Source: Anaerocolumna sp.
GTDB taxonomy: Bacteria > Bacillota > Clostridia > Lachnospirales > Lachnospiraceae
Direction: 5' to 3'
Length of the DNA stretch: 64,000 nt
Assembly (NCBI GenBank): GCA_029256725.1
Contig: JAQSXJ010000015.1
Location: forward strand, 62,001-126,000
Shown: in pieces, positions 2,982 through 18,953 of the stretch
Position numbering within the stretch: the stretch's first letter is position 1
Layout of the letters: every line of letters begins with the position of its first letter
Translations under genes and position numbers: made by a program
The notes under the pieces: model-generated
The model's database searches: none
What the model was told of the DNA's origin: nothing
What the model saw: the letters and a program-made list of their open reading frames with translations, nothing else

Positions 2982-3476
2982 TTATCTCTTCACCTTACTC
3001 TTCTCAGTTACGACTATAGAGCCCTTTGCCACTATCTTTTGATCAACATATGCCGTCACCTTAGCTTCTATATAGTTATCCCAACTGTATATATTCCTTG
3101 ACTCTAATACAATTTGGTCACCAGGTTTTATTATTTTATAGTGCCGCATTTTATTAACACCTACCAAATATCCTATCTTTGCTTGTGAATCTTCATCATT
3201 TGTATATGCGTACATAATTCCACTAATTTGAGCAAGTGCTTCAATTAACAATGCCCCTGGGAATATATTATTATCAGGAAAATGTCCTTGAAAAAAAGGT
3301 TCATTATGACTTACATTTTTTATACCAATCGCATATTCTTTCGGTTTTACTTCTAAGATTCGATCAACAAGTAAAAACGGATATTTATGAGGTAAAATTT
3401 CTTTTACATCACGCAGGTTCTCAGTTATAACATTATTTACTCCAATATCAATAGCATTATTACCGTACATAGCCAC
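2982..3476 (-). CDS. FabZ-type 3-hydroxyacyl-ACP dehydratase of the cluster
   Basis: This 164-residue single hotdog-fold dehydratase shows the FabZ signatures HKYPFLLVDRI and GHFPDNNIFPG followed by EALAQ, which supply the catalytic His and Glu. It would remove water from 3-hydroxyacyl-ACP to give trans-2-enoyl-ACP. It is the last gene of the operon, and its start overlaps the NRPS gene by 17 nt, which suggests translational coupling. Because a KR and DH are present but no enoyl reductase or malonyl transferase is seen in the cluster, the acyl product is likely to stay unsaturated (polyene-like), with malonyl supply borrowed from housekeeping FabD. The dehydratase call is firm; the polyene is inference. 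Confidence 0.9.
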   Translation of the reverse strand: MAMYGNNAIDIGVNNVITENLRDVKEILPHKYPFLLVDRILEVKPKEYAIGIKNVSHNEPFFQGHFPDNNIFPGALLIEALAQISGIMYAYTNDEDSQAKIGYLVGVNKMRHYKIIKPGDQIVLESRNIYSWDNYIEAKVTAYVDQKIVAKGSIVVTEKSKVKR

Positions 3477-6432
3477 TAACCTCCTCTTCTAATCTCTCTA
3501 CGAATTCGTCTATAAATTTCGTATCATATAACGCTGCGTTATACTTGATTTCAAAATGTATTTCTTGATTTTCTTCTATAACACCGAAATAGAAACTTCT
3601 ATTTGTTATATCAGGGTTAAAATTGACGGAATTAATCTCTTCTATAAGTTCCGGATACTTTTCCAGACAGGACCAGTTATTCTGATAATTGAAACAAATA
3701 TCAAATATTTCACCATCCTCTAGCTCCTCCATGGGTAAAAGTTGATATAAGCAGCTCTGTGAGATATTTTGATTCATCAGCATTTGCTGGACTTCTTTTT
3801 GAATTGTTTTTATTATATCTGCCTCTTCCCATATACATATCAACGGTAATACATTTGTAAACATCCCCAGTACACCGTTATCAATCAATGGGTTTCTTCC
3901 AGGTAAATAACATCCAATTCTCATCGTATCAGCACTGGTGTATATCCTTATTACTTTAACAAAAATCGAAAGCAAAGCCATAAACATAGAGGTATTATTC
4001 TGTTTAGACATTTTTATGAGATTATTATACATACTTGTGGAACAACTATAATGATAAAGCTCATAGGTTTTATTCTCACTAGTAATTGTGGCAGCTGGTA
4101 ATTTCGTTCTTTCAGGCGATTTATCAAGTTGGCGTTTCCAATAATTAATTGTTTTTTCTTCCAAAAAATTATTTTTACTCAAATAGGAAATAAAGCCCAT
4201 TCTTGACTTACTTTTATCACCGCAGTACAGACTAAAAACATCCGATAGAAAATATTGAACTGAAATAAAATCTAATAAGATGTGTTTTACATTTATAATA
4301 AATTCTTTTTTATTAACCTGTACAACTTCCAATAATTCATCATCAAAAAGATCTAAATATGTAATTTGGTTTACTAATTCACCCTCTAAGGTTTGTTTGA
4401 TTTTCAGTGACTGAGGGATTTCTTTTAGAATACAAAAGCATCGGTTTCTTTTACGAATAAATCGAATTCTGAATGTTTCATTTTCAGACATTACAGTGTT
4501 TATGCATTGCTCCAGTCTATCAACGTCAGGTTCGTCTTTGAATTTTATTTTGTATATTAATGAATATCCTAATAATTCTGATTTAGGTTTTTGACTTTTT
4601 ATTGCCTTTCGCTCTAGATCAAATAACTTTTTTTGAGATTCAATGATTGGATATTCTAATTCTACTAAGCTATTATCAGTCACTGGTGTATTAGTCATTT
4701 TTAATTGTGGTTTAAGAGTCTTCAAATAATTGATTATTTCCTCTATTGTTTCACTGGCATATATCTTAGATATATCTAAGTCTATCTCATACCTCGTTAA
4801 GATATCACTTATAAATGCTAGCATTGTAATCGAATCTCCACCTAAAGTATAGAAGGATTTTTGCTTATCAATCCTGTTATATCCAATTAACTTCTCCAGT
4901 AATTGCGAAACGAATTCTTCAATGCTTAGCTCCTGATTATGCTTCATATCGTTCAATAACATATGATAATCAATTTTTCCATTTTGATTGACAGGGAATT
5001 CCTTACAATACATGATTTCTTGCGGAATCATGTAATATGGAAGTTCTTCTCTTAATCGTCTTTTTATTTCATTTATATTATATTCTTTATCACCTACATA
5101 AAAAGCATAAAGTCTAGTAAAATCATTTATATCTTTTTTGGTTATTACCCTGGCCTCTTTAATGTTTGAAAGTTTTTCAATTGCATGTTCTATTTCTTCG
5201 ATTTCAACTCTATATCCATTAATTTTGCACTGCCGGTCCACTCTTCCAACAAATTCAAAGACTCCATTTTCATCCTGTTTTACAAGATCTCCTGTTCTAT
5301 ATGACTTAGGATGGGGACCGTCATGAATGGAATCAAAGGGATTAGGATTTATCTCTCTTTTACTAATATACCCCATACCAACACAGTCACCAAAAATGAC
5401 CATCTCGCCAACTTCACAGGCATTTAAAAATTTGTCTCCATCCATAACTCTTAAAATGGAATTACTTGTATTAATTCCTATTGGTATGGAACTCATTTTT
5501 TTTATATTTTTCTTATTTAATTCATAGTAGGTGACCAATACTGTACATTCTGCAGGACCATAAGAGTTATATAAAATGAAGTTATCATTGTCAACGAGGT
5601 CAATTACTTCTTCAGCCAGATTATAGCTTAATACATCCCCAATACAGAAAATTATGCTGGTATGTAATTTAAGGCCTTTATTACATTTTAAATGATTGGC
5701 TATTAAACGCAGGTAATTTGGGGTTGCGTCTATCAGATCAATTTGATAATTATTAAGATATGTTACTATCCTCTCTCCATTTTGCTTTTCATTCTCGCAG
5801 ATAATATGTAAATTATGCCCCTTAAATAAACTGGCATAAATCATGAGAACACACATATCAAAACCAAATGGCGCAATAACTCCTGTATTGATATTATTCT
5901 GGTTTGGTAATGAAATAAACTTACAGGCCCATTTATCATAGAGTTCTACTACATTAAAATGGTTAATCAGTAAACCTTTCGGTTTTCCTGTTGATCCAGA
6001 GGTGTAAATAATATAAGCACCCATTTTCTGATGAATGATTGGAAAGGTAACAGGATTTATTTCATTGTCCGTGGCAGAAAATTTTGCTTTAAGGATACTA
6101 CTATAGGTTTCATCATCAATAAGAATACAAGCGTCCGAATCTTCTAACATAAATTGTTTTCTTTCCTCCGGATAACTTATATCAATAAACATGTAAGTAC
6201 ATCCAGTTTTCAAAACCCCTAACATAGCAACGATACAATCTTTACTTCTTTCCATACGAATGGCCACTACGCTACCTGCTGTGATATTAGAAGAAGTTAT
6301 ATAATATGCCACAGTATTACTTAGTTCCTCTAATTTATCATAGGTATAGCTGCCGTTAGAATCTGTCAGTGCCATCAAATCTCTATATTGTTCCACAGCA
6401 TTATTAAAGTATGCTACGATTGATCTCTCCAA
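3460..6432 (-). CDS. Single-module NRPS, domain order A-T-C
   Basis: This 990-residue protein begins directly with an adenylation domain (about 1-490): A3 YTSGSTGKPKG at 143-153, A5 NSYGPAE at 289-295, A7 YRTGDL at 378-383, and A10 NQNGK with its Lys at 486. A thiolation domain follows with LGGDS (attachment Ser534). It ends in a condensation domain (about 590-990) whose HHxxxDG motif reads KHILLDF at 716-722: the second His and the Asp are kept, while the first His and the Gly are replaced. A C5-like NVLPL motif is present. The protein probably loads one amino acid and joins it to an acyl group from the neighbouring type II system. Substrate and acceptor cannot be read from the sequence. Confidence 0.9.
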   Translation of the reverse strand: MERSIVAYFNNAVEQYRDLMALTDSNGSYTYDKLEELSNTVAYYITSSNITAGSVVAIRMERSKDCIVAMLGVLKTGCTYMFIDISYPEERKQFMLEDSDACILIDDETYSSILKAKFSATDNEINPVTFPIIHQKMGAYIIYTSGSTGKPKGLLINHFNVVELYDKWACKFISLPNQNNINTGVIAPFGFDMCVLMIYASLFKGHNLHIICENEKQNGERIVTYLNNYQIDLIDATPNYLRLIANHLKCNKGLKLHTSIIFCIGDVLSYNLAEEVIDLVDNDNFILYNSYGPAECTVLVTYYELNKKNIKKMSSIPIGINTSNSILRVMDGDKFLNACEVGEMVIFGDCVGMGYISKREINPNPFDSIHDGPHPKSYRTGDLVKQDENGVFEFVGRVDRQCKINGYRVEIEEIEHAIEKLSNIKEARVITKKDINDFTRLYAFYVGDKEYNINEIKRRLREELPYYMIPQEIMYCKEFPVNQNGKIDYHMLLNDMKHNQELSIEEFVSQLLEKLIGYNRIDKQKSFYTLGGDSITMLAFISDILTRYEIDLDISKIYASETIEEIINYLKTLKPQLKMTNTPVTDNSLVELEYPIIESQKKLFDLERKAIKSQKPKSELLGYSLIYKIKFKDEPDVDRLEQCINTVMSENETFRIRFIRKRNRCFCILKEIPQSLKIKQTLEGELVNQITYLDLFDDELLEVVQVNKKEFIINVKHILLDFISVQYFLSDVFSLYCGDKSKSRMGFISYLSKNNFLEEKTINYWKRQLDKSPERTKLPAATITSENKTYELYHYSCSTSMYNNLIKMSKQNNTSMFMALLSIFVKVIRIYTSADTMRIGCYLPGRNPLIDNGVLGMFTNVLPLICIWEEADIIKTIQKEVQQMLMNQNISQSCLYQLLPMEELEDGEIFDICFNYQNNWSCLEKYPELIEEINSVNFNPDITNRSFYFGVIEENQEIHFEIKYNAALYDTKFIDEFVERLEEEVSGYVR

Positions 6433-7155
6433 TTATAACCTACCCCCATCCACTACTAAAGTTTGTGCTGTGATATAAGATGAGCTGTCGCTTCCAAGAA
6501 AATACACTGCATCAGCTACTTCTTCAGGTTTACCCAGGCGGTTTAAAGGAATTTCACCAATAGATTTTTGGATTTTTATATTGTTAGTATCTACCATGTC
6601 AGTATCTATAAATCCAGGCGCGACTATATTAGCTCTAACATTTTTTCTTGCATATTCTCTCGCCAGACATTCAGTTAGACCAATAAGCCCTGCCTTGGAA
6701 GCAGCATAATTGGTCTGACCAGCATCAGGCCGGATTCCACCCGTTGATGAAACAGTAACAATACTTGCACCTGCTTTAAAATTAAGACTAAGAAATAACG
6801 ATTTTATTACATCTCTGCATCCGATCAGATTGGTATTTAATACACTATGAAACACTTCATCACTCATTGTAATGAAAGATTCATCTTTTACAATCCCACT
6901 GCAGTAAACAATACAGTCAATAACAGAAAAGGTTTTATCTACAAACTCACTAAACTTTTCGATAGAACCCTTATCGGTAACATCTAACTGATAGGAGTCA
7001 ATAGATACTGAAAGGTCGTCCATATTTATAATGTCTTTTACACTTTTATTTGAATTATGATAACTATAAATTATATTATAATTGTGGTTTATGAATTTAC
7101 GTACAATTGCTGCACCTATACCACCTGAACCACCAATGATTACTGCATTTTTCAT
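6433..7155 (-). CDS. FabG-type 3-ketoacyl-ACP reductase (KR)
   Basis: This 240-residue short-chain dehydrogenase has the NADPH-binding glycine motif GGSGGIG near residue 8, the catalytic Ser in VSSTGG and the YAASK motif (Tyr and Lys). It ends in VVDGG, as FabG proteins do. It abuts the NRPS gene with no spacer and lies 11 nt after the chain-length-factor-like gene. It would reduce the beta-keto group after each condensation by the KS pair. Position inside a type II set with its own ACP and dehydratase argues for a role in the secondary product rather than housekeeping fatty acid synthesis. Confidence 0.9.
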   Translation of the reverse strand: MKNAVIIGGSGGIGAAIVRKFINHNYNIIYSYHNSNKSVKDIINMDDLSVSIDSYQLDVTDKGSIEKFSEFVDKTFSVIDCIVYCSGIVKDESFITMSDEVFHSVLNTNLIGCRDVIKSLFLSLNFKAGASIVTVSSTGGIRPDAGQTNYAASKAGLIGLTECLAREYARKNVRANIVAPGFIDTDMVDTNNIKIQKSIGEIPLNRLGKPEEVADAVYFLGSDSSSYITAQTLVVDGGRL

Positions 7156-7166
7156 AAATCACCTAT

Positions 7167-8177
7167 TTATCTTTCTAAGCGCATTATAGTATAGTTTCCT
7201 GTTAGATCAAAGGAACAGATTGCAATACTGTTTACCTGTTCCGGATTTACACTTTTGTTTAAAAGAGTCTCTGGAATAGTATTTTTTTCTATTAATATTT
7301 TAGATAATAATACTTTTAATCCCAAATCAGCTCCTAAACAATTACCGAAGAAATCATGAGTTTTATCAATTACGCAAATAGAAGGGAAATTGGAATTTAG
7401 AACTTCTTTTTCAAATTTTCCTACCTCCGTATTGGGGTCATTTGTTATTACAACATCTGCATTTACAGTTAAATCAATAAGTTTTGATTGCAAATAATCA
7501 TAATTTTCTATTTGCATATCCTCATAAAGATTGCACCCCAAGTTAAATGTATTGATTTTCTTGATTGTGATACCCTTCGTATATTTCGTGTCATGTACTA
7601 ATCCGAAAACCACACATGCTTCTTTCAGATTTTGTTCTCTGCCACTCTGATAATTAATCGACTCTGCCAACTCATCATTATACTCATCCAAACATCCGGC
7701 CATTATAAAGTCGGCCTTTTCTTCCTTTAAAAGCATATCTGTCAGCATGAATTGATTGGAGCCCATCAGCATGGTACTTGGGCCAGTAATCCCCAATCGA
7801 ATTGATAAGGTACCAAGACAAGCATTATGTACAGTATTAGAAAAAAGAATCGGACTACAAGCATCCGGATCATCGGCAATAACTTGCTTCGCAAATTCCA
7901 TATTTGTTTCTAATGGTCCGTAGGATGTTGTAAAAATACAGCCGCTTTTATTTTTATCTGTTAGATTCATACGGTTAAAAGCTTCATCATAGCATTGCAC
8001 TGTTGCAGTAGTTGCCAAATCAGCAAATCGATTAATTTTTCTTTTATCTTTTTTTGATAAGCAGGACTCAAAATCATTTTTTTTACTTTGCAGAACAACA
8101 TTATTATTCAATCTATCCCATATTATTTCTGGATCATTTCCCATTGAGGTAATAAACCCTGCAGATATTATTTTCAT
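7167..8177 (-). CDS. Chain-length-factor-like ketosynthase, active Cys replaced by Gln
   Basis: This 336-residue protein belongs to the ketosynthase fold but is short and diverged. Where the partner KS has TSACAAG, this one has GSNQFML, so the active-site Cys is replaced by Gln142; the HGTGT and GHCLAAAG histidine motifs are not recognisable. Cys-to-Gln at this position is typical of the chain length factor (KS-beta) subunits of type II polyketide synthases, which pair with an active KS and set chain length. It overlaps the thioesterase gene by one nucleotide. Family membership is solid; the CLF role follows from the Gln and from the KS next door. Confidence 0.78.
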   Translation of the reverse strand: MKIISAGFITSMGNDPEIIWDRLNNNVVLQSKKNDFESCLSKKDKRKINRFADLATTATVQCYDEAFNRMNLTDKNKSGCIFTTSYGPLETNMEFAKQVIADDPDACSPILFSNTVHNACLGTLSIRLGITGPSTMLMGSNQFMLTDMLLKEEKADFIMAGCLDEYNDELAESINYQSGREQNLKEACVVFGLVHDTKYTKGITIKKINTFNLGCNLYEDMQIENYDYLQSKLIDLTVNADVVITNDPNTEVGKFEKEVLNSNFPSICVIDKTHDFFGNCLGADLGLKVLLSKILIEKNTIPETLLNKSVNPEQVNSIAICSFDLTGNYTIMRLER

Positions 8178-8608
8178 CAGGCAACCGCTCCTTTCAATTC
8201 TTGATATCGTTTCACTAGTTTATCCGGTAATGACAGCATTAATTGATTATTCAGATCGGTAACGACATGTACTGCCTGACCTGTACATGAAATCTTATTT
8301 CCGTAATATACAATGAAATCAAAAATTATCTTGATATCATCTTCAATATAAAATTTCAATACTACTGTTGCGGATTGGTTGCATTCGTACTTTATTGCAT
8401 TTACATATTTGATTGAAAAATGTGAAATCAAAAATTTCATATCTTCTTCGAGTACATTTATATCGAATAGACTAGGCTCATTCATAAACGAGAATTTTGC
8501 TTCTTCAACCAGCAATAAGTATTTACTATGGTGTAAGACTCCATAAGCATCCATATCTGAGAAACGAGGATAAACTTCATACTTATATTCTATAACTCCT
8601 TCTTTCAT
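8177..8608 (-). CDS. 4-hydroxybenzoyl-CoA-type hotdog thioesterase
   Basis: This 143-residue single hotdog domain has the 4HBT-family N-terminal motif RFSDMDAYGVLHHSKYLLLVEEA, with the Asp and the following Gly and Tyr in the expected spacing. It would hydrolyse or off-load acyl chains from ACP. It sits between the two ketosynthase genes and overlaps both by 1-4 nt, so the three are translationally coupled. Short 4HBT thioesterases recur in type II polyene and aryl-polyene clusters, where they edit or release the chain. The substrate is not known. Confidence 0.85.
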   Translation of the reverse strand: MKEGVIEYKYEVYPRFSDMDAYGVLHHSKYLLLVEEAKFSFMNEPSLFDINVLEEDMKFLISHFSIKYVNAIKYECNQSATVVLKFYIEDDIKIIFDFIVYYGNKISCTGQAVHVVTDLNNQLMLSLPDKLVKRYQELKGAVA

Positions 8609-9780
8609 TCAGATATCCCTCCAACGACGATGCTGGCTGCATTACCTGCAAAAGCAAAAGAGTTTGATAATGCGTAATGAATATCTTTCTGAACCAATTC
8701 AGCTGAGAGTTTAACTTCTTCTAAGGAATTAATGGGATTGCATATATTGATATTTGGATATACATAACTATTCTCAATACTTAAAACAGTAGCAGCAAAT
8801 TCAACAGCACCTGCAGCCGCCAGGCAGTGACCAACTTGAGACTTTATGGAATTAACATGGCATTCACTGGTTAATCTTTCAATCGCTTTTATTTCCATGC
8901 TGTCATTTATTTCTGTACCTGTTCCATGGGTATTGATGTAATCAATTTCAGCAGGGGCGATATCCGCTTGGTTTAGTGCTTGTGTCATAACTCTATAGGC
9001 TCCGTCACCAGATGGGTCTGGACTAGTTGCATGATAAGCATCATTCCCGAGTCCGTAGCCTAATACTTCACAATACATTTTCGCATTTCTTTTTTGCGCT
9101 GATTCATAACTTTCAAGAACAAAAAGAGCACCACCTTCGCCTAAAGTAATACCATCCCTATCTTTATCAAATGGCCTGCAAGGAGTGCTGCTTAAATTTT
9201 GTAGTGAATGAAATCCGTAACTTGAGAATTCCGTCAATGGATCTATTCCCCCTGTTATAACCATATCACAGATTCCAGAATTTACTAATGAGTATGCCGT
9301 TCCTATTGCAGTTGTCCCAGCGGCGCAAGCCGAGGTATTTACAAATACCGGGCCTTTAATTTTTAGCTTTTTAGGCAATTTATAAATATTACTTTTTGAT
9401 ATGGAGTTTTTAATAGTTCCTTTCACATGACCTGAAACATAATCATTGACTCCCACTGAGGTTGCAAAGGAAAAGCCAGCATTTTCATTTAAGTTACTAA
9501 TCATCTCTGGAGTGATCTTAGCATCCTCCAGTAATTGTGCAATTAAATCTTCGTACATGCACTCTAAACGAGATTTATCTTCCAAAGACTGAACCTCGTA
9601 GATGTATGTTTTATTTACCTGGCCGAAATAATCGGTACGAATCTTATCTGTAGGAAATAAGGTGGCTTTCTTAATACCACCTAATCCCCTGACTGCATTA
9701 TCATTAAATTCGTTAATATTATTTCCATTGGCCGCCATTATACTAATACCTGTTACAACAACCTTTTTCATTTTTGACAA
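8605..9780 (-). CDS. Active 3-ketoacyl-ACP synthase (KS-alpha, FabF-like)
   Basis: This 391-residue protein has all three catalytic residues: Cys152 in NTSACAAG, His285 in NTHGTGT and His318 in SQVGHCLAAAG. It would run decarboxylative condensation of malonyl-ACP on the growing chain, presumably as a heterodimer with the Gln-containing partner downstream. The start is a TTG at 9780, preceded by GAGGTGAT inside the end of the ACP gene; an ATG three codons later is the alternative. Neighbouring ACP, KR, DH and thioesterase genes make a complete minimal highly reducing type II set without an enoyl reductase. Confidence 0.92.
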   Translation of the reverse strand: MSKMKKVVVTGISIMAANGNNINEFNDNAVRGLGGIKKATLFPTDKIRTDYFGQVNKTYIYEVQSLEDKSRLECMYEDLIAQLLEDAKITPEMISNLNENAGFSFATSVGVNDYVSGHVKGTIKNSISKSNIYKLPKKLKIKGPVFVNTSACAAGTTAIGTAYSLVNSGICDMVITGGIDPLTEFSSYGFHSLQNLSSTPCRPFDKDRDGITLGEGGALFVLESYESAQKRNAKMYCEVLGYGLGNDAYHATSPDPSGDGAYRVMTQALNQADIAPAEIDYINTHGTGTEINDSMEIKAIERLTSECHVNSIKSQVGHCLAAAGAVEFAATVLSIENSYVYPNINICNPINSLEEVKLSAELVQKDIHYALSNSFAFAGNAASIVVGGISE

Positions 9781-9781: not shown

Positions 9782-10072
9782 TTACATCACCTCATCCAAC
9801 TTACTGTTAAGAAATTCCGCAATAGTCTTTATACTATGAAGAGCTTTCTTATCCCCATCTGCAAGTTTTAAATCATACTTAGATTTAATGGCTACAACTA
9901 TCTCTAATGCATCAACGGAATCCAATTCCAAGCCTTCTCCCAATTCATCCTGACTTGCGAATAAAGGAGCACCATAGTTTACCTCATTAACATTTACATC
10001 GTCTAATCCCAAGGCATCAATAATCATTTTGGCTACTTCCAAACATCTTTCATCCATATTCATCATACTCAT
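9782..10072 (-). CDS. Dedicated acyl carrier protein
   Basis: This is a 96-residue acidic helical protein with the phosphopantetheine site LDSVDALEIV (attachment Ser52), giving a DS-V core instead of the housekeeping DSLD. It is somewhat longer than a standard ACP of about 75-80 residues because of an N-terminal helix. It heads the type II synthase block, directly after the ABC exporter genes, and is followed one base later by the KS gene. It would be activated by the Sfp-type transferase at the far upstream end of the same operon. Confidence 0.9.
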   Translation of the reverse strand: MSMMNMDERCLEVAKMIIDALGLDDVNVNEVNYGAPLFASQDELGEGLELDSVDALEIVVAIKSKYDLKLADGDKKALHSIKTIAEFLNSKLDEVM

Positions 10073-10784: not shown

Positions 10785-12674
10785 CTACTCCGATATTGTT
10801 AAATATTTTCTTATATCTGAAGTAAATGCTCGTTTAATGGTTAAATGTAGAATCAGTGAACCACCAATTAGTAATAGAACATATACAAAAAGCATTAAAG
10901 TAATTGGAAAGGTCGTTCTAACAGGTACTGTTATAAATTCCAAAGACATATCAACTCCCATCCCAATAAAAGTTTTTGCCAGGAGAATTCCTATTACCGT
11001 TGCAATTGTGATGACATTCATCATCTGGAAAAGGTATGCTCTTTTAAGGGTATTAACATTCGCACCCATAGCTCTAAATCTTGTGATATCAAAAACATTT
11101 TGATTGGAAACAGATATATAAAAGTGAACTAACATCAAAAACGAAACCAGAATAACCAAAAATGCTGATATTTCAAATATTTCAACACCATTTATTGCAT
11201 TATCATAGCTATTGTCAGCAATCTCTTGTTTCGTAACCACATAATTTCCGGTAACGTTGGAATCGTTATTTAACGCTTCAATTACACTATCATTTGCTTT
11301 ATGGATATATAACGCATTTATCATATCAATATCAATTTGGCTTTGCATATACCCCTTACTCACAAACCCATATCTTCCTCTGCTTCCATTTGCCACAAAA
11401 CGTCCTGCTATCGTAAACTCTACTTTGTGATTATTAATCTGAAGAACATATTTTTCACCGATATCATCATCTGAAATGAAATAGTTTGGCAAATAGATTC
11501 CTGAAAAGGTTGGATCATTTAATGATACAGATGGATCACTCCCATCCGTAAGTACCATCTTCTCACCATACTTTCCATAATCACTGTCAATGGAATAAAT
11601 AGTGTTTTCATACCCTTCCGAATCTACCATTTCCAAATTAATTCCATATGCTATTTGGGCATCCGGATCCAGTTTAAAAACCAAATCCCTGTACTCCTCC
11701 TCCGAACGCTGCTTAATCACACTGGAGTGGATAATTAAATGATTGAAGAACATATTCTCCTCGACAGTGTCTTTCGCAATATTTCGCATCGTGGTGAACA
11801 TTCCTATAAGTCCTGCACTCAACATAACTCCAACCACCAGCGTAGAGATAATTGGATTTGTTCTTTTAAAGTATCCCATAAAAATCCTCTGGCTCAAAAC
11901 TAAGGATTTAAGGCCGAATAACTCCCCAATCTTTAGTAAAAGATGCTGAATACCTATTTCAATAATATCTAAGAGTAAGAAACCTCCTGCAATGGGTAAA
12001 ACGGCTAACATTCCATTGTCCTTTCCCATAAACAATCCACAAATAATCAGAACGAAGCCAACGATTCCCACTGCCCAGTCCTTCGTCTCAAGCTTCTTTA
12101 TCGTGTCTGTTTTATAAGGGCTTCTCATCTCTTCTAGTGGATCAAAGGACGCTATTTTCTTTAAGGTAACTAACATACATAATGTAATAATAAAAATGTG
12201 AAGGATTAATGCTCCTATGATATTGGCAAACCCAATCCATTTACTTTGTATATCTAAAATATCACTTAATAAAGTGTAGATTATTTCCATGAGTACAAGA
12301 GCGATAGGTACCGCATAAAATTGATAATATATAGACTCTTTTACATAAATGTATGAAAGTTGCTTTCTTGTAACACCAGAGAGTCTTAATTGGATATTAA
12401 ACTCTTTTCTAGTAGAAAAGATGGTTTTTATAACAATCCTCAATATCCAAAGTGAGAACAAAATAATCATAACCGATATTGCAATTAACAAATAAAAATA
12501 CATCGTTAATTGTTCATCTCTGGATATTCGTTCAGTTTCTAGTTTTATTTGGTATATTTCTCCTATTATCTTAGAGAAAACACCTACTACCACCAAATTT
12601 ATTACAGATACTACAATAAAAACCAACATTTGTGATTTATTATTTTTATAAAGCTGCTTCAATAAAGAATTCAT
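10785..12674 (-). CDS. FtsX-family ABC permease
   Basis: This integral membrane protein of about 629 residues starts at ATG 12674, which has AGGTG six nucleotides upstream; a longer frame to 12704 lacks a good site. It has an N-terminal membrane segment, three more helices with an FtsX-like loop, a large extracytoplasmic region of about 240 residues (about 330-500), and a C-terminal four-helix FtsX domain. This fits a MacB/BceB-like mechanotransmission permease rather than a classical channel exporter. It sits between the precursor peptides and its ATPase, and so probably handles their product. Confidence 0.85.
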   Translation of the reverse strand: MNSLLKQLYKNNKSQMLVFIVVSVINLVVVGVFSKIIGEIYQIKLETERISRDEQLTMYFYLLIAISVMIILFSLWILRIVIKTIFSTRKEFNIQLRLSGVTRKQLSYIYVKESIYYQFYAVPIALVLMEIIYTLLSDILDIQSKWIGFANIIGALILHIFIITLCMLVTLKKIASFDPLEEMRSPYKTDTIKKLETKDWAVGIVGFVLIICGLFMGKDNGMLAVLPIAGGFLLLDIIEIGIQHLLLKIGELFGLKSLVLSQRIFMGYFKRTNPIISTLVVGVMLSAGLIGMFTTMRNIAKDTVEENMFFNHLIIHSSVIKQRSEEEYRDLVFKLDPDAQIAYGINLEMVDSEGYENTIYSIDSDYGKYGEKMVLTDGSDPSVSLNDPTFSGIYLPNYFISDDDIGEKYVLQINNHKVEFTIAGRFVANGSRGRYGFVSKGYMQSQIDIDMINALYIHKANDSVIEALNNDSNVTGNYVVTKQEIADNSYDNAINGVEIFEISAFLVILVSFLMLVHFYISVSNQNVFDITRFRAMGANVNTLKRAYLFQMMNVITIATVIGILLAKTFIGMGVDMSLEFITVPVRTTFPITLMLFVYVLLLIGGSLILHLTIKRAFTSDIRKYLTISE

Positions 12675-12760
12675 AATTATCACCTGTTCTGGCAAATACT
12701 TCATAAAGAAGTATTTGCCTAATTTAATAAAACTAGATTATAAGAATTTACTTTTTAAAA

Positions 12761-12904
12761 TTAATTACAACAACTAGTACAACCAGTAAATCCTGCTGTT
12801 ACAATTTCTTCAACTTCTTCAAAAATCTCTTCTTTCGTATTCACAGTTGTTTCTTTTTCATTTAGAGTAATATTTTCGTTCAGATCTTTTTTCGTATTTT
12901 CCAT
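12761..12904 (-). CDS. RiPP precursor peptide A3 (47 aa), CxxCC core
   Basis: This small gene encodes 47 residues ending EEIVTAGFTGCTSCCN. The N-terminal 25 residues are polar and differ from the other two copies, while the last 22 (from EEIFEEVEEIVTAG onward) are nearly identical among the three. All cysteines (42, 45, 46) are in the final five residues. The pattern of variable leader start, acidic helical recognition segment and Cys-rich C-terminus next to a SPASM radical SAM enzyme and a protease is what a ribosomal peptide precursor should look like. It has a ribosome-binding site AAGGAG and lies 86 bp before the permease gene. I do not recognise the exact family. Confidence 0.8.
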   Translation of the reverse strand: MENTKKDLNENITLNEKETTVNTKEEIFEEVEEIVTAGFTGCTSCCN

Positions 12905-12926: not shown

Positions 12927-13061
12927 TTAGCTGCAGCAACTTGAGCATCCAGTAAATCCTGCTGTTACGATTTCTTCAACTTCCTCAAACATTTCTTCGC
13001 TTTCTACGATATTTTCTTTGATATCCTCAGCTTTTTGGGTAGTTACTTTATTATCTTCCAT
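12927..13061 (-). CDS. RiPP precursor peptide A2 (44 aa), CxxCC core
   Basis: The second of three paralogous precursors is 44 residues ending EEIVTAGFTGCSSCCS. It differs from copy A3 in the core at two or three positions only (T to S, final N to S), while the leader start is unrelated. The AG before the core could be the cleavage point (inference). A strong GAGGAGGATTAATTA-type ribosome-binding region precedes ATG 13061. Confidence 0.8.
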   Translation of the reverse strand: MEDNKVTTQKAEDIKENIVESEEMFEEVEEIVTAGFTGCSSCCS

Positions 13062-13092: not shown

Positions 13093-13227
13093 TTAATTAC
13101 AACAATTGGAACAACCAGTTAAACCTGCAGTGACAATTTCTTCAATTTCTTCAAAAATTTCTTCATTTTCATTTTGGACATTAGTAATAATAATGTCTTC
13201 CTTTGCGGAATTGAATTTCTTATCCAT
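13093..13227 (-). CDS. RiPP precursor peptide A1 (44 aa), CxxCC core
   Basis: The first of the three precursors in transcription order is 44 residues ending EEIVTAGLTGCSNCCN. Relative to the other copies it has Leu for Phe at the first core position after TAG, and Asn in place of the last Ser between the Cys residues. The conserved EEIxEEIVTAG segment and TGCxxCC core are retained. It has an AAAGGAAGG ribosome-binding site and lies downstream of a candidate internal promoter at 13325-13363. Confidence 0.8.
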   Translation of the reverse strand: MDKKFNSAKEDIIITNVQNENEEIFEEIEEIVTAGLTGCSNCCN

Positions 13228-13377: not shown

Positions 13378-13773
13378 TTATCCCTTAGCTCTACTTAAAT
13401 AATGATAAATAATATTGTGTAGACCTAATGTTATAAAAAAAATAATCCAGGTGACGGACCAGGCTGCAGTCACAGAACTGATAATCATATAGCTAAAAGC
13501 ACAGGCACACCATAAAAGAGTTGCTATCATTCTAAAGTATTTTGGTCTGGCTTCTAACACGGTTTCTTCATATTCTGAATCAGAATTACTTTTCGGTAGA
13601 AACTGTGAGCGATATACTAATATAGCCGTTGGCAGGATACAGATTAAAGCTGCTACCACTATCCCAACCTCATCTTTTTTGTAAATATTATCAGCCGCAA
13701 TTAGTATAACAGCGGCAAAGATATACATACTTACTGAAATCGCTAATAACAAAGCTGACTTTTCCTTTTTCAT
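13378..13773 (-). CDS. Small four-helix membrane protein, unknown function
   Basis: This 131-residue protein has four clear hydrophobic segments (about 8-28, 37-54, 82-103 and 107-124) and a short acidic loop in the middle (SNSDSEYEETV). I see no catalytic motif. It lies 3 bp after the M50 protease gene and before the precursor peptides, so it is likely part of the peptide system. An immunity protein or a partner of the transporter are reasonable options, but nothing in the sequence decides between them. Confidence 0.6.
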   Translation of the reverse strand: MKKEKSALLLAISVSMYIFAAVILIAADNIYKKDEVGIVVAALICILPTAILVYRSQFLPKSNSDSEYEETVLEARPKYFRMIATLLWCACAFSYMIISSVTAAWSVTWIIFFITLGLHNIIYHYLSRAKG

Positions 13774-13776: not shown

Positions 13777-14862
13777 CTAAAAACTCCTTTTGATTTTATG
13801 TATGAACTTACCAGTTAAATAGATAATGATTATTGCAAACGCAATATACAAAATAAAACTACTCAGTTCGAATAACCCAAGCCAATAATTAATATTAATA
13901 AAAATACTTACGAGACTAGATACAAACAGACCAAGCAAAATAAGTCCGCATATTTGGTATCTGCTATTTAATTTTACTTTATTTCCATTGAATAAATTAT
14001 TCAGATATTTGAAGCCTTTAAGGCGTAAATCTAAAATTCCTACCAGCATCGTCATCATAAAGTATCCATCTGTCATACCAAACAGTCCTAAATTCGTAAT
14101 AATTGTACTTATATTTGCTGAAATCCAAATATCGATTACAGCCCCATGAAAATATTCAGGAAGCAATGCTTTTAATAAGATCCCTATAAAGGCCATAATA
14201 AAATTAAAATAAATTCCGCCTGCCATAACTAATAGTTTTTTACTCTGTTTTTCCAGATTGAGACCAAAATATTGAACCAAGATAATTGGATATATAAAAT
14301 ACCAGCCCAGGCTGACATTATCAATTTTTACCCCTACATACCTGGCTATTGTACAATGCCCAATTTCATGGATCACCAATACTGCCCAGGGGAATACTGC
14401 AATGGTAAATATGATTTCCCACAGCTTCATATTTACATAGTCTATGCTTTGAGGTAGAAACATTCGATAATTCCAAAAGAATAAACCCATAAGAATTACA
14501 CTTAAAAACACGAAACCTATACCTAATTTGGTGGAACCAAAGGTATCTTTGGCTTCGCTTTTTGGAAAAAAACTAAAAAATACTTTTCCTACTTTTTTGA
14601 ATTCATTAAACGATCCTTTTGGTTCTACATCGTTTTCCAGATAACCAAGTTTACTAAAGTTATTAAAAATGCGAGTATTGTCTTCATCTAATGTATCAAC
14701 TACTATTTCCTCACTCTTATATTTATCAATGAATTTTGTAACAGCGTTTGCATACTTATAATCGATTTTTACAAAACTGTTTAGTGATTTAATGCCTACT
14801 AATAGCAGCCGGCCTGAGAGGGTATAGTTGATGTTATAGCAAAGGTTTTCTTTCACTTTCAT
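13777..14862 (-). CDS. M50-family membrane metalloprotease with RRE-like N-terminus
   Basis: This 361-residue membrane protein has the zinc motif HEIGH (His165, Glu166, His169) inside a membrane helix and a second-ligand segment MTDGYF (Asp265), as in site-2-protease-like M50 enzymes. The first 80 residues form a soluble domain with a winged-helix pattern (YANAVTKFIDKYKSEEIVVDTL then LGYLEND) that resembles the PqqD/RRE peptide-binding domain of RiPP enzymes. It would bind the precursor leader and cut it at or in the membrane, which fits the absence of a C39 domain on the exporter. The gene is 3 bp from the radical SAM gene. The protease call is firm; the RRE call is moderate. Confidence 0.85.
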   Translation of the reverse strand: MKVKENLCYNINYTLSGRLLLVGIKSLNSFVKIDYKYANAVTKFIDKYKSEEIVVDTLDEDNTRIFNNFSKLGYLENDVEPKGSFNEFKKVGKVFFSFFPKSEAKDTFGSTKLGIGFVFLSVILMGLFFWNYRMFLPQSIDYVNMKLWEIIFTIAVFPWAVLVIHEIGHCTIARYVGVKIDNVSLGWYFIYPIILVQYFGLNLEKQSKKLLVMAGGIYFNFIMAFIGILLKALLPEYFHGAVIDIWISANISTIITNLGLFGMTDGYFMMTMLVGILDLRLKGFKYLNNLFNGNKVKLNSRYQICGLILLGLFVSSLVSIFININYWLGLFELSSFILYIAFAIIIIYLTGKFIHKIKRSF

Positions 14863-14865
14863 CTC

Positions 14866-16158
14866 TTATATCTCCTTATGATACTTGTTGTAAGCGATTA
14901 ACTTTTTGTTAATAAGATCTTTGTTATCTTTATAATGATCCACCAAAAATTTAATTATTTTTCTTGTATAGATATTCATTAAGATACAACGTTCCTGCAG
15001 CTCTTTGCTGATGCTTCCTTTTAGATTGTTTTGCAGTCCTTTACACCAGACTCCGCAAACTTTCTTAGCAATACACCTTTGACATGCTTCATTGTCATAG
15101 CGACAGCCTTCTCTAACTTCTTTGAAGCCTATATTCTCTTGTAAGTTCTGCAAGGAATTTAAGTTGTTGAATTCGACAGCATACTTATCATGTTCCGTAA
15201 AGGTATGGCATGGGTACATTCTTCTATTAGGTGTTATTGAGAATGAATGACCCGCGGAGCAATCCCTTTGTTCTACTTGCATTAGAATTCTAATCATTAA
15301 ACCAATAAACGTACGGGGAACCTTTGTTATGTCACCATTTAAGATTTTGTCAACATAGTATTCTGCAGTTTCTGTACAAAATAGCTCGTACTTCTCTAAG
15401 GTGTCTTTGTCTTCAATATCAATACGATATCTATCATCATCGGAACTAACTGGAATTAATTCGTAGGTATTAATTGGCATCTCTTCCATTTCCCCACACC
15501 ATTGATTAACATATCCTGGTCGATAACTATCTAAGTGTTGTTTTGTGAAGGTATATTGAGCATAGATATTAGTTCCTCTCTCTTTTAGTGTTTTTAGGTT
15601 TTTATATACAATATCGTATGTACTTTCGATATGCTCTGCGACTCTGTTTTTATCATGGATCTCTTTTGTTCCATCAATACTTGTGCCAATGATAATATTG
15701 TATTTGCAAATAAACTCTAAAATTTCATCATTTAAAATCGTTGCATTTGTATTTATTGATAATTGGGGCACTTTATCTGAGGTCTCATAAAGGTACTCCA
15801 CAAATTTTTTGATTTGTCGAAAGTTTAAGATTGGTTCACCACCAAAAAAGGATATTGCCTTTACTCCATTATGAATTTCTTTTATCTTCTCATAAGTGGC
15901 CACATAGGCTTCAAAATCAAATTGACGTTTTGAGTCATGAATACCGTAGGTTCCCTCTTCGGCATAACAATATTTACATTTTAGATTACATGTCGTTGCT
16001 GCCAAATAAATAATTGTCGGCCTCCAACCTTCATCATTTACGGAGGGGGCTTCAATTTTTCTGGGAACTTTTAAGAATTCTTTAATACTTCCATCTCTTT
16101 CAAGGAAAATCTTTATGGCTTCACTATCAAACCAAATCTTATCGTCTACTTTATACAT
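14866..16158 (-). CDS. Radical SAM/SPASM peptide maturase
   Basis: This 430-residue protein has the SAM-binding cluster motif CNLKCKYC (Cys57, 61, 64), the GGEP motif (FFGGEPIL), and a C-terminal SPASM domain with a Cys around the ITPNRRMYPC segment and the CQRCIAKKVCGVWCKG arrangement for auxiliary Fe-S clusters. This is the architecture of peptide-modifying enzymes that form thioether or carbon-carbon crosslinks (sactipeptide, ranthipeptide, SCIFF and related). Substrates are almost surely the three CxxCC precursors in the same operon. The gene overlaps the upstream BtrH-like gene by 8 nt. The bond type formed cannot be told from the sequence. Confidence 0.93.
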   Translation of the reverse strand: MYKVDDKIWFDSEAIKIFLERDGSIKEFLKVPRKIEAPSVNDEGWRPTIIYLAATTCNLKCKYCYAEEGTYGIHDSKRQFDFEAYVATYEKIKEIHNGVKAISFFGGEPILNFRQIKKFVEYLYETSDKVPQLSINTNATILNDEILEFICKYNIIIGTSIDGTKEIHDKNRVAEHIESTYDIVYKNLKTLKERGTNIYAQYTFTKQHLDSYRPGYVNQWCGEMEEMPINTYELIPVSSDDDRYRIDIEDKDTLEKYELFCTETAEYYVDKILNGDITKVPRTFIGLMIRILMQVEQRDCSAGHSFSITPNRRMYPCHTFTEHDKYAVEFNNLNSLQNLQENIGFKEVREGCRYDNEACQRCIAKKVCGVWCKGLQNNLKGSISKELQERCILMNIYTRKIIKFLVDHYKDNKDLINKKLIAYNKYHKEI

Positions 16159-17089
16159 ACGCTGAAATCACCCTCTCTTTTAGTATTCTTTCAAATAAGG
16201 ACTGCTCTTCTTTTTCAATACTTGAAACAACAGTGTCAATTAGTTCATAATCTATTTCTTTGTCTTCCATAATGGATTTCTTTATTAGTCTTGCAATCTT
16301 CCTCCAAAGATTCCCGCTTCTTTCAAGTTCTTCAAACTGAAGATTCATTTGGGCTTTTAAGGCCTCATTAAATTCTCGTCTATAAAAAAAGGAGCTGCCA
16401 TTTTGAATGCTCTGTAATATCACATATTTTGATACCTTGTTCATTGGCTCCCAATTATTTAATAGAATATTTTTGAAACTGCTATAGAAATCTGAACCTT
16501 TTACCCAGCCCCCACGCTCATCTTCGTATAAATCAGACTGAATCAGCAGTCTGATATTATCTTCAATACAATTTCGTTTGTTTTCTGCGCTCACTTCTAA
16601 GGATTCCAGGTAAATAAATTTAAAGGGTACACCAAGCGGTTTTATTTTTAAACTTTCCAATTTTTTAAGACTACTTTTTGAAATTAACTTTTCCATAATA
16701 CTTTCGTCATAGTCACCCTCTAATACTATCGTGTCATCATTAATTTCGGCGATTCTGTAAGTACCGTAGGTATGAAAGAATTGTACGACATTCGTCTTGA
16801 GATTTTGAATCTTATCAAAATCCATATATGGAAGAGTTACTAAGACTCGACTAAACTGTTCTTGCTTTAAGGCAAATAGTTCATCAATTTCAAGATACCT
16901 ATAAGTGAGTGATAACTTATCCAGTAATTCATCGATAAAGCAGATACCCCGGCCTTGTAGAATGTATAGTGTACTTCCGCCATAGGACATATGGTTAATA
17001 GTGTTACTGAGTCCGCTACATAAAACAGCTTCATAATAGTTTAAATTTTCGATTTTTTCTTCCAATAGATATAAATCGCAGCTTCTCAC
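16151..17089 (-). CDS. BtrH-like (DUF4872-type) protein, possible acyltransferase
   Basis: This 312-residue protein resembles butirosin protein BtrH and relatives: an N-terminal segment with a Cys followed by a glycine-rich helix start (AVLCSGLSNTINHMSYGGST), and a C-terminal helical tail of the type LWRKIARLIKK followed by an acidic helix. BtrH moves an acyl group from an acyl carrier protein to an amine. If the assignment holds, this protein is a natural link between the ACP-bound acyl chain and the modified peptide. It overlaps the radical SAM gene by 8 nt, so the two are probably made together. The assignment comes from pattern memory only, so confidence is moderate. Confidence 0.5.
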   Translation of the reverse strand: MRSCDLYLLEEKIENLNYYEAVLCSGLSNTINHMSYGGSTLYILQGRGICFIDELLDKLSLTYRYLEIDELFALKQEQFSRVLVTLPYMDFDKIQNLKTNVVQFFHTYGTYRIAEINDDTIVLEGDYDESIMEKLISKSSLKKLESLKIKPLGVPFKFIYLESLEVSAENKRNCIEDNIRLLIQSDLYEDERGGWVKGSDFYSSFKNILLNNWEPMNKVSKYVILQSIQNGSSFFYRREFNEALKAQMNLQFEELERSGNLWRKIARLIKKSIMEDKEIDYELIDTVVSSIEKEEQSLFERILKERVISAYV

Positions 17090-17227
17090 CTCTTATTCAC
17101 GCCTTTCTTTTTCTTAATGATTTAATCATATAATATAAATAACCGTAAAAAAAAACTCATATTGACTGCAAACAACATAAAAATGACCTCAAAAAAAGAA
17201 GATAATTTCATAAAAATTATCTCCTTC

Positions 17228-17770
17228 TTATCTTAGTTTATAGAATCTATTCCTTTTAAGATCATGCAGGTAGGACTCGTGTTCATTAATAATTAACTCA
17301 TACACATCATCTGCCTCTTTTTTTTGTGGGTTTTGGTTGCTATGGTAATAATATATGCCATACTTGTTGCTATTTACATGCTCAATTATCTCCTCAATCA
17401 CTTCATTAATACCTTTTGTGTGATATTTTGATGACGACCATCGTTTAATAATTCTACGCAGATCTGTTTTACTAAGGTAATTTTTCTTGCTTAAAATCTG
17501 CTCCCAAAAACTGTCTTTATCTATATTATTTATAGTCAAAATAAAATCAAACGCATCCTTATGCTGTTCATATACAAACCCCATTTCTAAGTAAACTTTG
17601 ATGTGTAATAAGGCTACCTTGCAATATTCTTTATCTTGCGTCTGATTATATAAAGTTACAAGCTGATCAACCAATACTTCTAACGTTTTTTCTATGGATA
17701 TGTTTCTGTATCCAATGGTACCGTAAAGTAATTTAATAGCTTCAATAACATCTCTCCCATTTTCAATCAT
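17228..17770 (-). CDS. Unrecognised helical protein (180 aa) of the operon
   Basis: This 180-residue soluble protein is mostly predicted helix, with no signal peptide, membrane segment or obvious catalytic motif. A mid-region KTDLRRIIKRWSSSKYHTKG is basic and could bind nucleic acid or peptide. It lies between two other operon genes (19 bp and 138 bp spacers) on the same strand and is likely co-transcribed with the biosynthetic genes. I do not recognise the family. Confidence 0.6.
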   Translation of the reverse strand: MIENGRDVIEAIKLLYGTIGYRNISIEKTLEVLVDQLVTLYNQTQDKEYCKVALLHIKVYLEMGFVYEQHKDAFDFILTINNIDKDSFWEQILSKKNYLSKTDLRRIIKRWSSSKYHTKGINEVIEEIIEHVNSNKYGIYYYHSNQNPQKKEADDVYELIINEHESYLHDLKRNRFYKLR

Positions 17771-17789
17771 TTTTGAAACTCCTGTTAAA

Positions 17790-18206
17790 TTAATTTCTTA
17801 AACCGATATTTATTAACTTGAAATCATTTATATCATATTCATTCATTATTTGATGAAACTGCTCACCAATACATAGGTATATGCATTCATTTTTTTCATT
17901 ATATTTACATTCATCAAAGCATCTGCTGTTACAAAAGTACAACTTGTGCAATTGCTTTGTCATAAGTCTATATACATATCCGGTTGTCACTTGTCCATCA
18001 CAAAGCTGATAATCAAGGCTATCTCTATTTATCTCTATGATAGAAATTAGATATTTCAAAAAAGGTATGCTTACAAACTTATGTATAGGAATGTAAAAAT
18101 GTTGTTTCCGGTTTTTTTTAATTTCTTCAATTAATGATATAACTATTTCCCTCGATATAATTACGAATGATGTTGTAGAGAAATAGAGATTGTTACATTT
18201 TTCCAT
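17790..18206 (-). CDS. Unrecognised Cys-cluster protein (138 aa) of the operon
   Basis: This 138-residue protein has a central-to-C-terminal cysteine cluster CNSRCFDECKYNEKNEC followed by IYLC, that is C-x3-C-x3-C-x7-C-x3-C, which could hold zinc or an Fe-S cluster. The rest is hydrophobic-polar helix without a clear membrane span. It is the second gene after the phosphopantetheinyl transferase, 15 bp away. It could be a partner of the radical SAM enzyme or a regulator; neither can be shown from the sequence. I do not recognise the family. Confidence 0.6.
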   Translation of the reverse strand: MEKCNNLYFSTTSFVIISREIVISLIEEIKKNRKQHFYIPIHKFVSIPFLKYLISIIEINRDSLDYQLCDGQVTTGYVYRLMTKQLHKLYFCNSRCFDECKYNEKNECIYLCIGEQFHQIMNEYDINDFKLINIGLRN

Positions 18207-18221
18207 AATCCCTCCATTTTA

Positions 18222-18953
18222 TTAACTTGCTTTTATATCCGTTTTCTTTAACTCCAAAGCAAAATTATTTGTGCATACAATTGTATAAACAAAGTCCTCC
18301 TCAAAAAATGTGTATGCTTCCAGCGTAGGAAAATATCGATAGCTGGATTTAAAACCACTATCTGTCCATTCAACTGATGAAATCTGCATTACATCAAAAT
18401 TAACCGACAGACCTAGTTTTAGAAATTTAACAAGTGCTTCTTTCATTGTCCAGGCTGCTATAACGAAATTATCATTATCATAGTTAAGTGGGCAAAGTTT
18501 CCTTTCCTTGTCTGTTAGAATGGTATTTATACTTTTAACTTTTTTTAAATCCAACTTTTCCATGTCTAAACCAAGAACCATCTCTTCCGGAAACACTATA
18601 ATGGCAGCATAATCATCACAATGTGTTATACCTAACCCATAGCCTTGCTCCTTGCTCTTAATAATAGGGTTATTCAGATAACCTTTTGCAATCTTTATAT
18701 CCGTCAGCTTATGCTCCTCTTTATATAAAGAACGCAATATAGTTTTAGCTAATGTTCTGCTCCAATAAAATTCACTTTTTCTCTTATCTGATTTTTTTTG
18801 CAGGTATTCTCTCATTTCATCTGCTGAGAGAATACTACTTACTCCCTCCTTTAGATATGGCGAATTTGTATTGCATATGCCTAATGTAAGTTCTCCCTGA
18901 AGCTGTTTAGCGTAATCAGAGTAGGTTAAGATCACTTTATCGTTTCTATACAT
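18222..18953 (-). CDS. Sfp-type 4'-phosphopantetheinyl transferase
   Basis: This 243-residue protein has the magnesium-binding pair Asp130 and Glu132 in LGLDMEKLD and the motif AAWTMKEALVKFLKLG (Trp168, Lys171-Glu172, Lys176) that define Sfp/AcpT-type transferases. It would move phosphopantetheine from CoA to Ser52 of the cluster ACP and Ser534 of the NRPS. It is the first gene of the 16-kb operon, with a strong AAAGGAGGTG ribosome-binding site, while its carrier-protein targets lie at the other end. That is good evidence that the RiPP genes between them belong to the same unit. Confidence 0.92.
   Translation of the reverse strand: MYRNDKVILTYSDYAKQLQGELTLGICNTNSPYLKEGVSSILSADEMREYLQKKSDKRKSEFYWSRTLAKTILRSLYKEEHKLTDIKIAKGYLNNPIIKSKEQGYGLGITHCDDYAAIIVFPEEMVLGLDMEKLDLKKVKSINTILTDKERKLCPLNYDNDNFVIAAWTMKEALVKFLKLGLSVNFDVMQISSVEWTDSGFKSSYRYFPTLEAYTFFEEDFVYTIVCTNNFALELKKTDIKAS

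What the first reader, a model, noticed from the sequence alone, without database searches (positions are those of the whole stretch)
2982..18953. Candidate new system: one quorum-bracketed operon that joins a radical-SAM RiPP machine to a type II polyketide/NRPS machine
Seen: one strand, short or overlapping junctions, order PPTase, two unknowns, BtrH-like protein, radical SAM/SPASM, M50 protease, small membrane protein, three CxxCC precursors, ABC exporter, ACP, KS, thioesterase, Gln-type KS, KR, A-T-C NRPS, dehydratase. Known: each half exists alone (sactipeptide-like clusters; polyene type II PKS clusters with NRPS), and lipid-RiPP hybrids such as lipolanthines and goadvionins use other maturases. 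Inference: the PPTase at one end needs carrier proteins at the other, so the RiPP genes in between are part of the unit. The product may be a short crosslinked peptide carrying an unsaturated acyl-amino-acid cap.
Basis: partly seen in the sequence, partly recalled or inferred. Interest (0 to 1): 0.92.

Follow-up and report, generated by a model that had tools for sequence, protein, structure and literature searches.

The report
Radical-SAM peptide joined to polyketide operon
One bacterial operon carries both the genes for a tiny ribosome-made peptide and the genes for a fatty, polyketide-like chain, and the same unusual pairing turns up in several distantly related bacteria, so the two are very probably stitched into one new kind of lipopeptide.

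Summary
Confirmed: 19 genes on one strand (2982-18953) run from a PPTase through BtrH-like protein, radical SAM/SPASM, M50 protease, three ~45-aa Cys precursors and an FtsX/ABC exporter into ACP, KS, thioesterase, CLF, KR, A-T-C NRPS and FabZ. Junctions are -17 to +150 nt; no terminator-like site lies between the halves. A same-genus genome keeps every gene under purifying selection. RiPP clusters without visible PKS exist; one (G657) has a ligase-carrier fusion instead. The likely joiner is the BtrH-like protein: invariant Cys, stepwise homology to BtrH/DarH acyltransferases, and a poor model whose 14 best Foldseek matches are all CcbD, CtaG or AziU2/U3 (none at E 0.001 or better). Product: a short, probably crosslinked peptide with an unsaturated acyl(-amino acid) cap; chemistry untested. 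A new variant of lipo-RiPP hybrids; no prior report seen in the listings of ten searches.

The parts
18222..18953 (-). Sfp-type 4'-phosphopantetheinyl transferase (arms ACP and T domain)
   Evidence: ACPS 1.9e-9; G261 86%; a PPTase also lies in the G1076 cluster
17790..18206 (-). unkB, unknown protein, seen only in G261 besides the window
   Evidence: no family above cut-off; dN/dS 0.13
17228..17770 (-). unkA, unknown protein, seen only in G261 besides the window
   Evidence: no family above cut-off; dN/dS 0.16
16151..17089 (-). divergent BtrH/DarH-like acyltransferase with invariant Cys4; proposed joiner of acyl chain and peptide
14866..16158 (-). radical SAM/SPASM peptide maturase (C57xxxC61xxC64; C300, C317, C359, C362, C368, C372, C391)
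   Evidence: 6e-18; PapB family 4.6e-41 but below cut-off; these Cys invariant in 7 of 7 aligned
13777..14862 (-). M50 intramembrane metalloprotease (HEIGH), proposed leader protease
   Evidence: 7.9e-8; daptide and YydH/LiaK protease families 8e-8 and 2e-7, below cut-off
13378..13773 (-). small membrane protein (membrane by eye)
   Evidence: G261 83%
13093..13227 (-). precursor C: leader ...EEIEEIVTAG / proposed core LTGCSNCCN
   Evidence: dN/dS 0.10
12927..13061 (-). precursor B: proposed core FTGCSSCCS
   Evidence: dN/dS 0.20
12761..12904 (-). precursor A: proposed core FTGCTSCCN
   Evidence: dN/dS 0.33
10785..12704 (-). FtsX-type ABC exporter permease
   Evidence: 1.8e-8
10094..10771 (-). 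ABC exporter ATPase
   Evidence: 9e-29
9782..10072 (-). acyl carrier protein (DSVD Ser)
   Evidence: 35% to G1076 ACP, 43% to G402 ACP
8605..9780 (-). ketosynthase (TSAC nucleophile)
   Evidence: 37-40% to the KSs of G1076, G417 and G402
8177..8608 (-). 4HBT thioesterase
   Evidence: 7.5e-8; 4HBT proteins also in G1076 and G402
7167..8177 (-). chain-length-factor-like, Cys-less ketosynthase partner
6433..7155 (-). ketoreductase
   Evidence: 3e-52
3460..6432 (-). A-T-C NRPS, 990 aa
   Evidence: same architecture in G1076 and G417
2982..3476 (-). FabZ-type dehydratase
   Evidence: 3.4e-45, above NCBIfam cut-off
1070..1795 (-). LytTR response regulator
   Evidence: LytTR 1e-12
1962..2561 (+). AgrB; AgrD-like peptide 2545-2655 (+) by eye
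   Evidence: AgrB 8e-24
19549..19707 (+). AgrD-like peptide (by eye)
   Evidence: conserved in G261; no Pfam match
20171..22798 (+). AgrB, LytTR response regulator and GHKL histidine kinase
   Evidence: AgrB 4e-36, LytTR 2e-21, GHKL 3e-24

Best explanation
A single, quorum-controlled pathway for an acylated, crosslinked mini-peptide. (1) The PPTase arms the ACP and the T domain. (2) KS/CLF with KR and FabZ builds an unsaturated chain on the ACP, the thioesterase proofreading or releasing it; no dedicated enoyl reductase was recognised among the 19 genes, which favours a polyene-like chain. (3) The A-T-C protein loads an amino acid and most likely N-acylates it with the chain. (4) The radical SAM/SPASM enzyme crosslinks the Cys residues of the ~9-residue core after reading the EExEEIVT leader. 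(5) The M50 protease cuts near TAG. (6) The BtrH-like Cys enzyme moves the acyl or acyl-aminoacyl group from its carrier onto the freed peptide amine. (7) The FtsX/ABC pair exports the product. Shown here: gene content, order, selection, recurrence in four lineages. Inferred: every reaction, and the order of steps 4 to 6.
For: RiPP and PKS sets together in G261, G1076, G417 and G402. G417 and G402 were found with a CLF profile; that profile was built from the CLFs of the window, G261 and G1076, but holds no RiPP information. Same A-T-C architecture in the window, G1076 and G417. Interleaving in G402 (contig direction: TE-DH-ABC-FtsX-KS-DH-precursors-BtrH-like-aminotransferase-SDR-CLF/KR-ACP-M50-rSAM). 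Precursors at the far end of the PKS genes in G1076. G657 has a ligase+carrier protein, overlapping the ABC gene, in place of the PKS. BtrH-like: family chain, Cys 11 of 11, Foldseek ranks 1-14 all CcbD/CtaG/AziU2-U3. Precursor HMM: the 13 best of 4307 small ORFs in 22 loci are the candidate precursors. dN/dS 0.05-0.33 for the 19 genes.
Against: BtrH-like genes also sit in RiPP clusters with no carrier gene in the stretch fetched (G1008, G1048, second G657 cluster), so the enzyme may use household acyl-ACP or do something else. Its catalytic His is not conserved in the 11-row alignment. The profile of true BtrH proteins does not find the window's protein directly (E 0.72) and profile-profile comparison was weak (18.8%, E 0.0012). 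The structure model is poor (mean pLDDT 44.9); Foldseek gave no match at E 0.001 or better, TM-scores of the top rows are 0.2-0.33 with rmsd 18-21 A, and VIA-align likens the N-part to C39 peptidases. Only 2 of the 13 precursor-HMM hits have E below 0.01. No A-T-C is visible on the 14.5-kb contig of G402. No chemistry was tested.
Confidence: 0.7

Rival explanations
1. Two products from one operon: a radical-SAM bacteriocin-like peptide and a separate polyenoyl-amino acid, made together under quorum control and perhaps acting together.
For: RiPP clusters with no PKS in the stretch held exist (Lachnotalea glycerini, G1008, G1048, second G657 cluster; G810 and G683 on cut contigs), so the peptide can probably be made without PKS. 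No assay shows one molecule.
Against: Recurrent pairing in four lineages, interleaving in G402, and precursors on either side of the PKS genes. rSAM tree: hybrids scattered among RiPP-only clusters, at least 4 changes of label, that is, repeated re-pairing or loss. G657 shows another carrier-bound acyl source in the same slot.
Confidence: 0.17
2. Same hybrid product (so this overlaps with the best explanation; the odds are not exclusive), but the terminal C domain of the A-T-C protein makes the bond to the peptide, and the BtrH-like protein does another step such as leader cleavage or acyl proofreading.
For: The C domain lies downstream of T and keeps the second His and the Asp of HHxxxD in all three A-T-C proteins. 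BtrH_N is related to C39 peptidases (PMC10318531, passages), and VIA-align likens the model's N-part to C39 domains. BtrH-like occurs without carrier genes nearby in some clusters.
Against: G657 has BtrH-like plus ligase-carrier but no C domain in that protein. M50 already offers a leader protease. Foldseek's best matches are CcbD, CtaG and AziU2/U3, not peptidases.
Confidence: 0.25
3. Chance neighbourhood: a PKS/NRPS cluster inserted beside a RiPP cluster.
For: The BtrH-like gene of the cluster is in only 2 of 15 genomes of the genus.
Against: Four independent arrangements with different gene orders; 21-nt junction; the 19 genes under purifying selection.
Confidence: 0.02

Closest known systems
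Goadvionins and lipolanthines (polyketide-RiPP hybrid lipopeptides of actinobacteria)
   Same: RiPP core joined to a PKS-made acyl chain (goadvionin paper known from its title in the references of PMC12159101; PMC9505594 passages name these two as the polyketide-hybrid lipopeptide RiPPs)
   Different: Those carry avionin/lanthipeptide-type cores (PMC10435860, start of abstract in the listing; enzymology and GNAT transferase recalled). Here radical SAM/SPASM maturase, M50 protease, type II KS/CLF plus A-T-C NRPS and a BtrH-like enzyme
Selidamides
   Same: Acylated RiPPs (PMC9505594 passages)
   Different: GNAT enzymes and fatty acids from primary metabolism on Orn/Lys side chains; here a dedicated PKS
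Epipeptide yydFGHIJ locus
   Same: Small precursor, radical SAM enzyme, membrane protease, ABC transporter (PMC7026026 passages)
   Different: Epimerase chemistry; M50 match here is below the family cut-off
PapB-type ranthipeptide and SCIFF maturases
   Same: Nearest named rSAM families
   Different: Scores far below cut-offs (141 vs 340; 131 vs 425 bits); window cores lack the Cys-x3-Asp/Glu motif described in PMC9413430 (passages)
Highly reducing type II PKS (ishigamide, aryl polyenes; cyl-type clusters)
   Same: ACP, KS, CLF, KR, DH set; ishigamide and aryl polyene KS-CLF pairs (PMC8358021 passages)
   Different: Coupling to a RiPP; CLF 23% identical to that of a Lactococcus cyl-like cluster, KS 35% to that of G920
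BtrH (butirosin), CcbD, CtaG, AziU2/U3
   Same: BtrH is an acyl carrier protein:aminoglycoside acyltransferase with a papain-like domain related to C39 (PMC10318531 passages); CcbD was solved with a PCP domain (entry title)
   Different: Known acceptors are small molecules (aminoglycoside, methylthiolincosamide by entry title; CtaG recalled); here the acceptor would be a ribosomal peptide

Membership tests
Lipolanthine/goadvionin | lanthipeptide-type synthetase and GNAT acyltransferase (recalled) | tested here: not met
   No such domain listed for the 19 genes in Pfam
PapB ranthipeptide | rSAM above the NCBIfam cut-off | tested here: not met
   141.1 vs 340 bits
PapB ranthipeptide | Cys-x3-Asp/Glu in the core | tested here: not met
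   no Asp/Glu after Cys in the three window cores
Epipeptide (YydF) | M50 protease above the LiaK/YydH cut-off | tested here: not met
   31 vs 225 bits
Radical SAM/SPASM RiPP maturases (broad) | CxxxCxxC plus SPASM cysteines | tested here: met
   10 Cys invariant in 7 of 7
BtrH/DarH acyltransferases | PF14399 or DarH above cut-off in the window protein | tested here: not met
   PF14399 not listed at E 0.1; DarH 12.4 vs 300 bits. G1076, G1008 and G1048 pass the PF14399 cut-off
BtrH/DarH acyltransferases | homology through intermediates and an N-terminal Cys | tested here: met
   G1076/G1008/G1048 profile finds G683 3e-11 and G402 3.5e-8 (window itself only 0.7); window-group profile finds G402 4e-7 and G683 3e-5 among 611 ORFs; Cys 11 of 11
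BtrH/DarH acyltransferases | conserved catalytic His | tested here: inconclusive
   His at the aligned column in 3 of 11 rows; rows other than G261 are 15-26% identical to the window's
BtrH/DarH acyltransferases | fold like carrier-dependent relatives CcbD/CtaG | tested here: inconclusive
BtrH/DarH acyltransferases | transfers acyl from carrier protein to amine | not testable with these tools
   needs enzyme assay
Highly reducing type II PKS | ACP, KS with Cys, Cys-less CLF, KR, DH in one locus | tested here: met

The most novel reading that the evidence does not exclude
A new class of tri-hybrid natural products, ribosomal + type II polyketide + nonribosomal in one molecule, in which a BtrH/CtaG-type Cys enzyme is the general 'plug' between a radical-SAM mini-RiPP and any carrier-bound acyl group (PKS, ligase-carrier or household ACP). 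The PKS partner has been gained or lost at least four times on the rSAM tree.
Probability: 0.5. Interest if true: 0.92.

Novelty: new variant of a known kind. Interest (0 to 1): 0.83.

Why it matters
Lipidated RiPPs are rare: PMC9505594 (2022, passages) named selidamides, lipolanthines, goadvionins and prenylated cyanobactins. A recurrent family that couples a genetically editable peptide to a type II polyketide through a papain-like transferase would give a second, unrelated chemistry for lipidating ribosomal peptides. It gives a search recipe (CLF or BtrH-like beside rSAM-M50 and EExEExVT precursors) for more such products and a direct test of what BtrH-like genes in RiPP clusters do.

Tried and rejected

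Literature: ten full-text searches gave no title or start of abstract in the listings describing a radical-SAM RiPP with type II PKS. Eight papers were opened, passages only (PMC12159101, PMC9505594, PMC8358021, PMC10318531, PMC3949708, PMC8430323, PMC7026026, PMC9413430); the other listed papers were not opened.

After the filing check I added, corrected the account of the agr genes, the Foldseek caveats, the counts of kb and identities, and removed habitat words.
Full report
WHAT IS THERE. The window lies on contig C13 of a 5.53-Mb genome. Between 18953 and 2982 nineteen genes follow one another on the minus strand: PPTase, two unknowns, BtrH-like, radical SAM/SPASM, M50, small membrane protein, three precursors, FtsX permease, ABC ATPase, ACP, KS, 4HBT thioesterase, CLF, KR, A-T-C NRPS, FabZ. 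The 18 junctions are -17 to +150 nt and most start codons have a Shine-Dalgarno-like stretch by eye. Of 10 terminator-like sites found in 1-20000 (7.5 +/- 2.8 expected) the four on the minus strand fall inside genes. Two AgrB genes, two LytTR regulators and a GHKL kinase flank the operon, with AgrD-like peptides by eye. Precursor A reads MENTKKDLNENITLNEKETTVNTKEEIFEEVEEIVTAGFTGCTSCCN; B and C are alike.

CONSERVED AS ONE BLOCK. Of 15 genomes of the genus (own included) 2 have the BtrH-like gene at E 1e-5: the own and G261. G261 carries every one of the 19 genes at 73-95% amino-acid identity in the same order, as part of homology spanning window 1-22802 with gaps. dN/dS is 0.05-0.11 for the enzymes, ACP and exporter, 0.13-0.20 for unkB, unkA and the membrane protein, and 0.10-0.33 for the precursors, so both halves are maintained.

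THE RiPP FAMILY. A scan of genome contigs with a three-row rSAM alignment gave two loci: the contig of G344 (decayed: rSAM split over two frames, M50 cut to 132 aa) and Lachnotalea glycerini DSM 28816, with rSAM, M50, exporter and two precursors ending in ITPAAGIAWCCN and ITPASGILVCCN. Profile searches of 397 family genomes (5 with a match at E 1e-48 or better, own included) and 391 class genomes (237 at that limit; the tail at or below 199 bits I take for SCIFF-type background, and I fetched the five best outside the window's genome) added G657 (two clusters), G683, G810, G1008, G1076 and G1048. Their tiny precursors share E/D-rich leaders mostly ending near VTP or VTA and a short Cys core. 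A profile made only from the window and G261 precursors ranked candidate precursors 1 to 13 among 4307 small ORFs of 22 loci, two at E 4e-5 and the rest at 0.03 to 6; it missed five more divergent ones. Of the three window precursors and ten others none scores near an NCBIfam cut-off.

THE CO-OCCURRENCE TEST. In G1076, of another family, the genes run rSAM, M50, FtsX, ABC, BtrH, ACP, KS, FabZ, CLF, KR, A-T-C NRPS (1057 aa, 24% over 981 aa to the window's), PPTase, two 4HBT proteins, a flavodoxin-type reductase, three precursors (cores GSGFGCACS, GSGFGCNCN, GSGFGCDC) and AgrB. Because G1076 was found by its rSAM, I then searched with the CLF alone (profile of the window, G261 and G1076 CLFs). 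Of 246 genomes drawn from the window's order, three matched at E 1e-15 or better: the window's own, G417 and G402. G417 has ACP-KS-DH-CLF-KR-A-T-C-reductase-BtrH-like-precursor-rSAM-M50-FtsX-ABC. G402 has thioesterase-DH-ABC-FtsX-KS-DH-three precursors-BtrH-like-aminotransferase-SDR-CLF/KR fusion-ACP-M50-rSAM on a 14.5-kb contig (contig direction; genes on the minus strand). Both new CLF finds in this order therefore carry the RiPP set, and in G402 the two sets are interleaved. In 58 genomes of the order of G1076 two matched: G1076 and, weakly, G920; in its genus 4 of 11 at E 1e-12. G920, G959 and G1101 are not hybrids: a cyl-like KS-CLF fusion cluster twice, and a lone KS.

EVOLUTION. On the rSAM tree of 19 rows the hybrid label needs four changes, a number forced by well-supported branches: the window pair groups with G657 and G344 (100/100), G402 with Lachnotalea (100/98), G1076 with G1008 and G1048 (100/98). 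On the 9-row KS tree the hybrids may be one group (67/77, weak). So similar PKS machinery has been paired with different branches of the RiPP family, or lost repeatedly. Recurrent pairing is what a shared product predicts.

WHAT IS NOT SHOWN. The crosslink type, the cleavage site, the chain, the amino acid loaded by the A domain, the direction of the C domain and the joining step are inferred. G402 shows no A-T-C on its contig, and of the hybrids only the window pair and G1076 show a PPTase match.

COMPARISON AND NOVELTY. Polyketide-RiPP lipopeptides are known (lipolanthines, goadvionins), as are GNAT-acylated selidamides (PMC9505594 passages; goadvionin by title in PMC12159101). The synthetase and GNAT types recalled for those were not listed for the 19 genes. 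The radical SAM enzyme and the M50 protease fall below the cut-offs of the NCBIfam families listed. The ten literature searches listed no title or start of abstract describing a radical-SAM RiPP with type II PKS. I rate it a new variant of a known kind, with a real chance of being its own class.

Noticed in passing
window 19955-20080: 126-bp element with 33-nt inverted arms (88%), MITE-like, in the gap between the AgrD-like peptide and agrB; blastn to G261 breaks over this stretch.
   Followed up: partly
L039/L043 (G344, CALWLD010000037.1): Decayed relative of the cluster: rSAM split over two frames, M50 truncated, no precursor seen.
   Followed up: partly
L105 8489-10927 and L106 7830-10268: KS-CLF fusion of 812 aa with ABC, aminomethyltransferase (GCV_T 6e-28), ACP, DH and KR genes, a set resembling cyl clusters, in two genomes of genus g465 (cyl likeness by eye).
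   Followed up: partly
L054 9527-13072: M50 protease and FtsX permease fused into one 1181-aa protein beside an rSAM and a precursor ending AVCCIG.
   Followed up: no
L093 8756-9556: Five tandem near-identical precursors ending TPACGGGCGAGC or TPACGGGCGGGC (plus one divergent upstream) between a BtrH protein and an rSAM in G1008.
   Followed up: no
L095 12525-14336: B12-binding radical SAM protein near the rSAM, M50 and BtrH-like genes of G1048: possible extra peptide modification.
   Followed up: no
window 35139-56923: Large set that looks like anaerobic cobalamin biosynthesis and transport genes beyond the cluster (by eye).
   Followed up: no
window 1-1082 (-): ORF cut by the window edge beside the first LytTR gene, perhaps a second AgrC-like kinase (by eye); G261 has a match to the other kinase in the corresponding place.
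   Followed up: no
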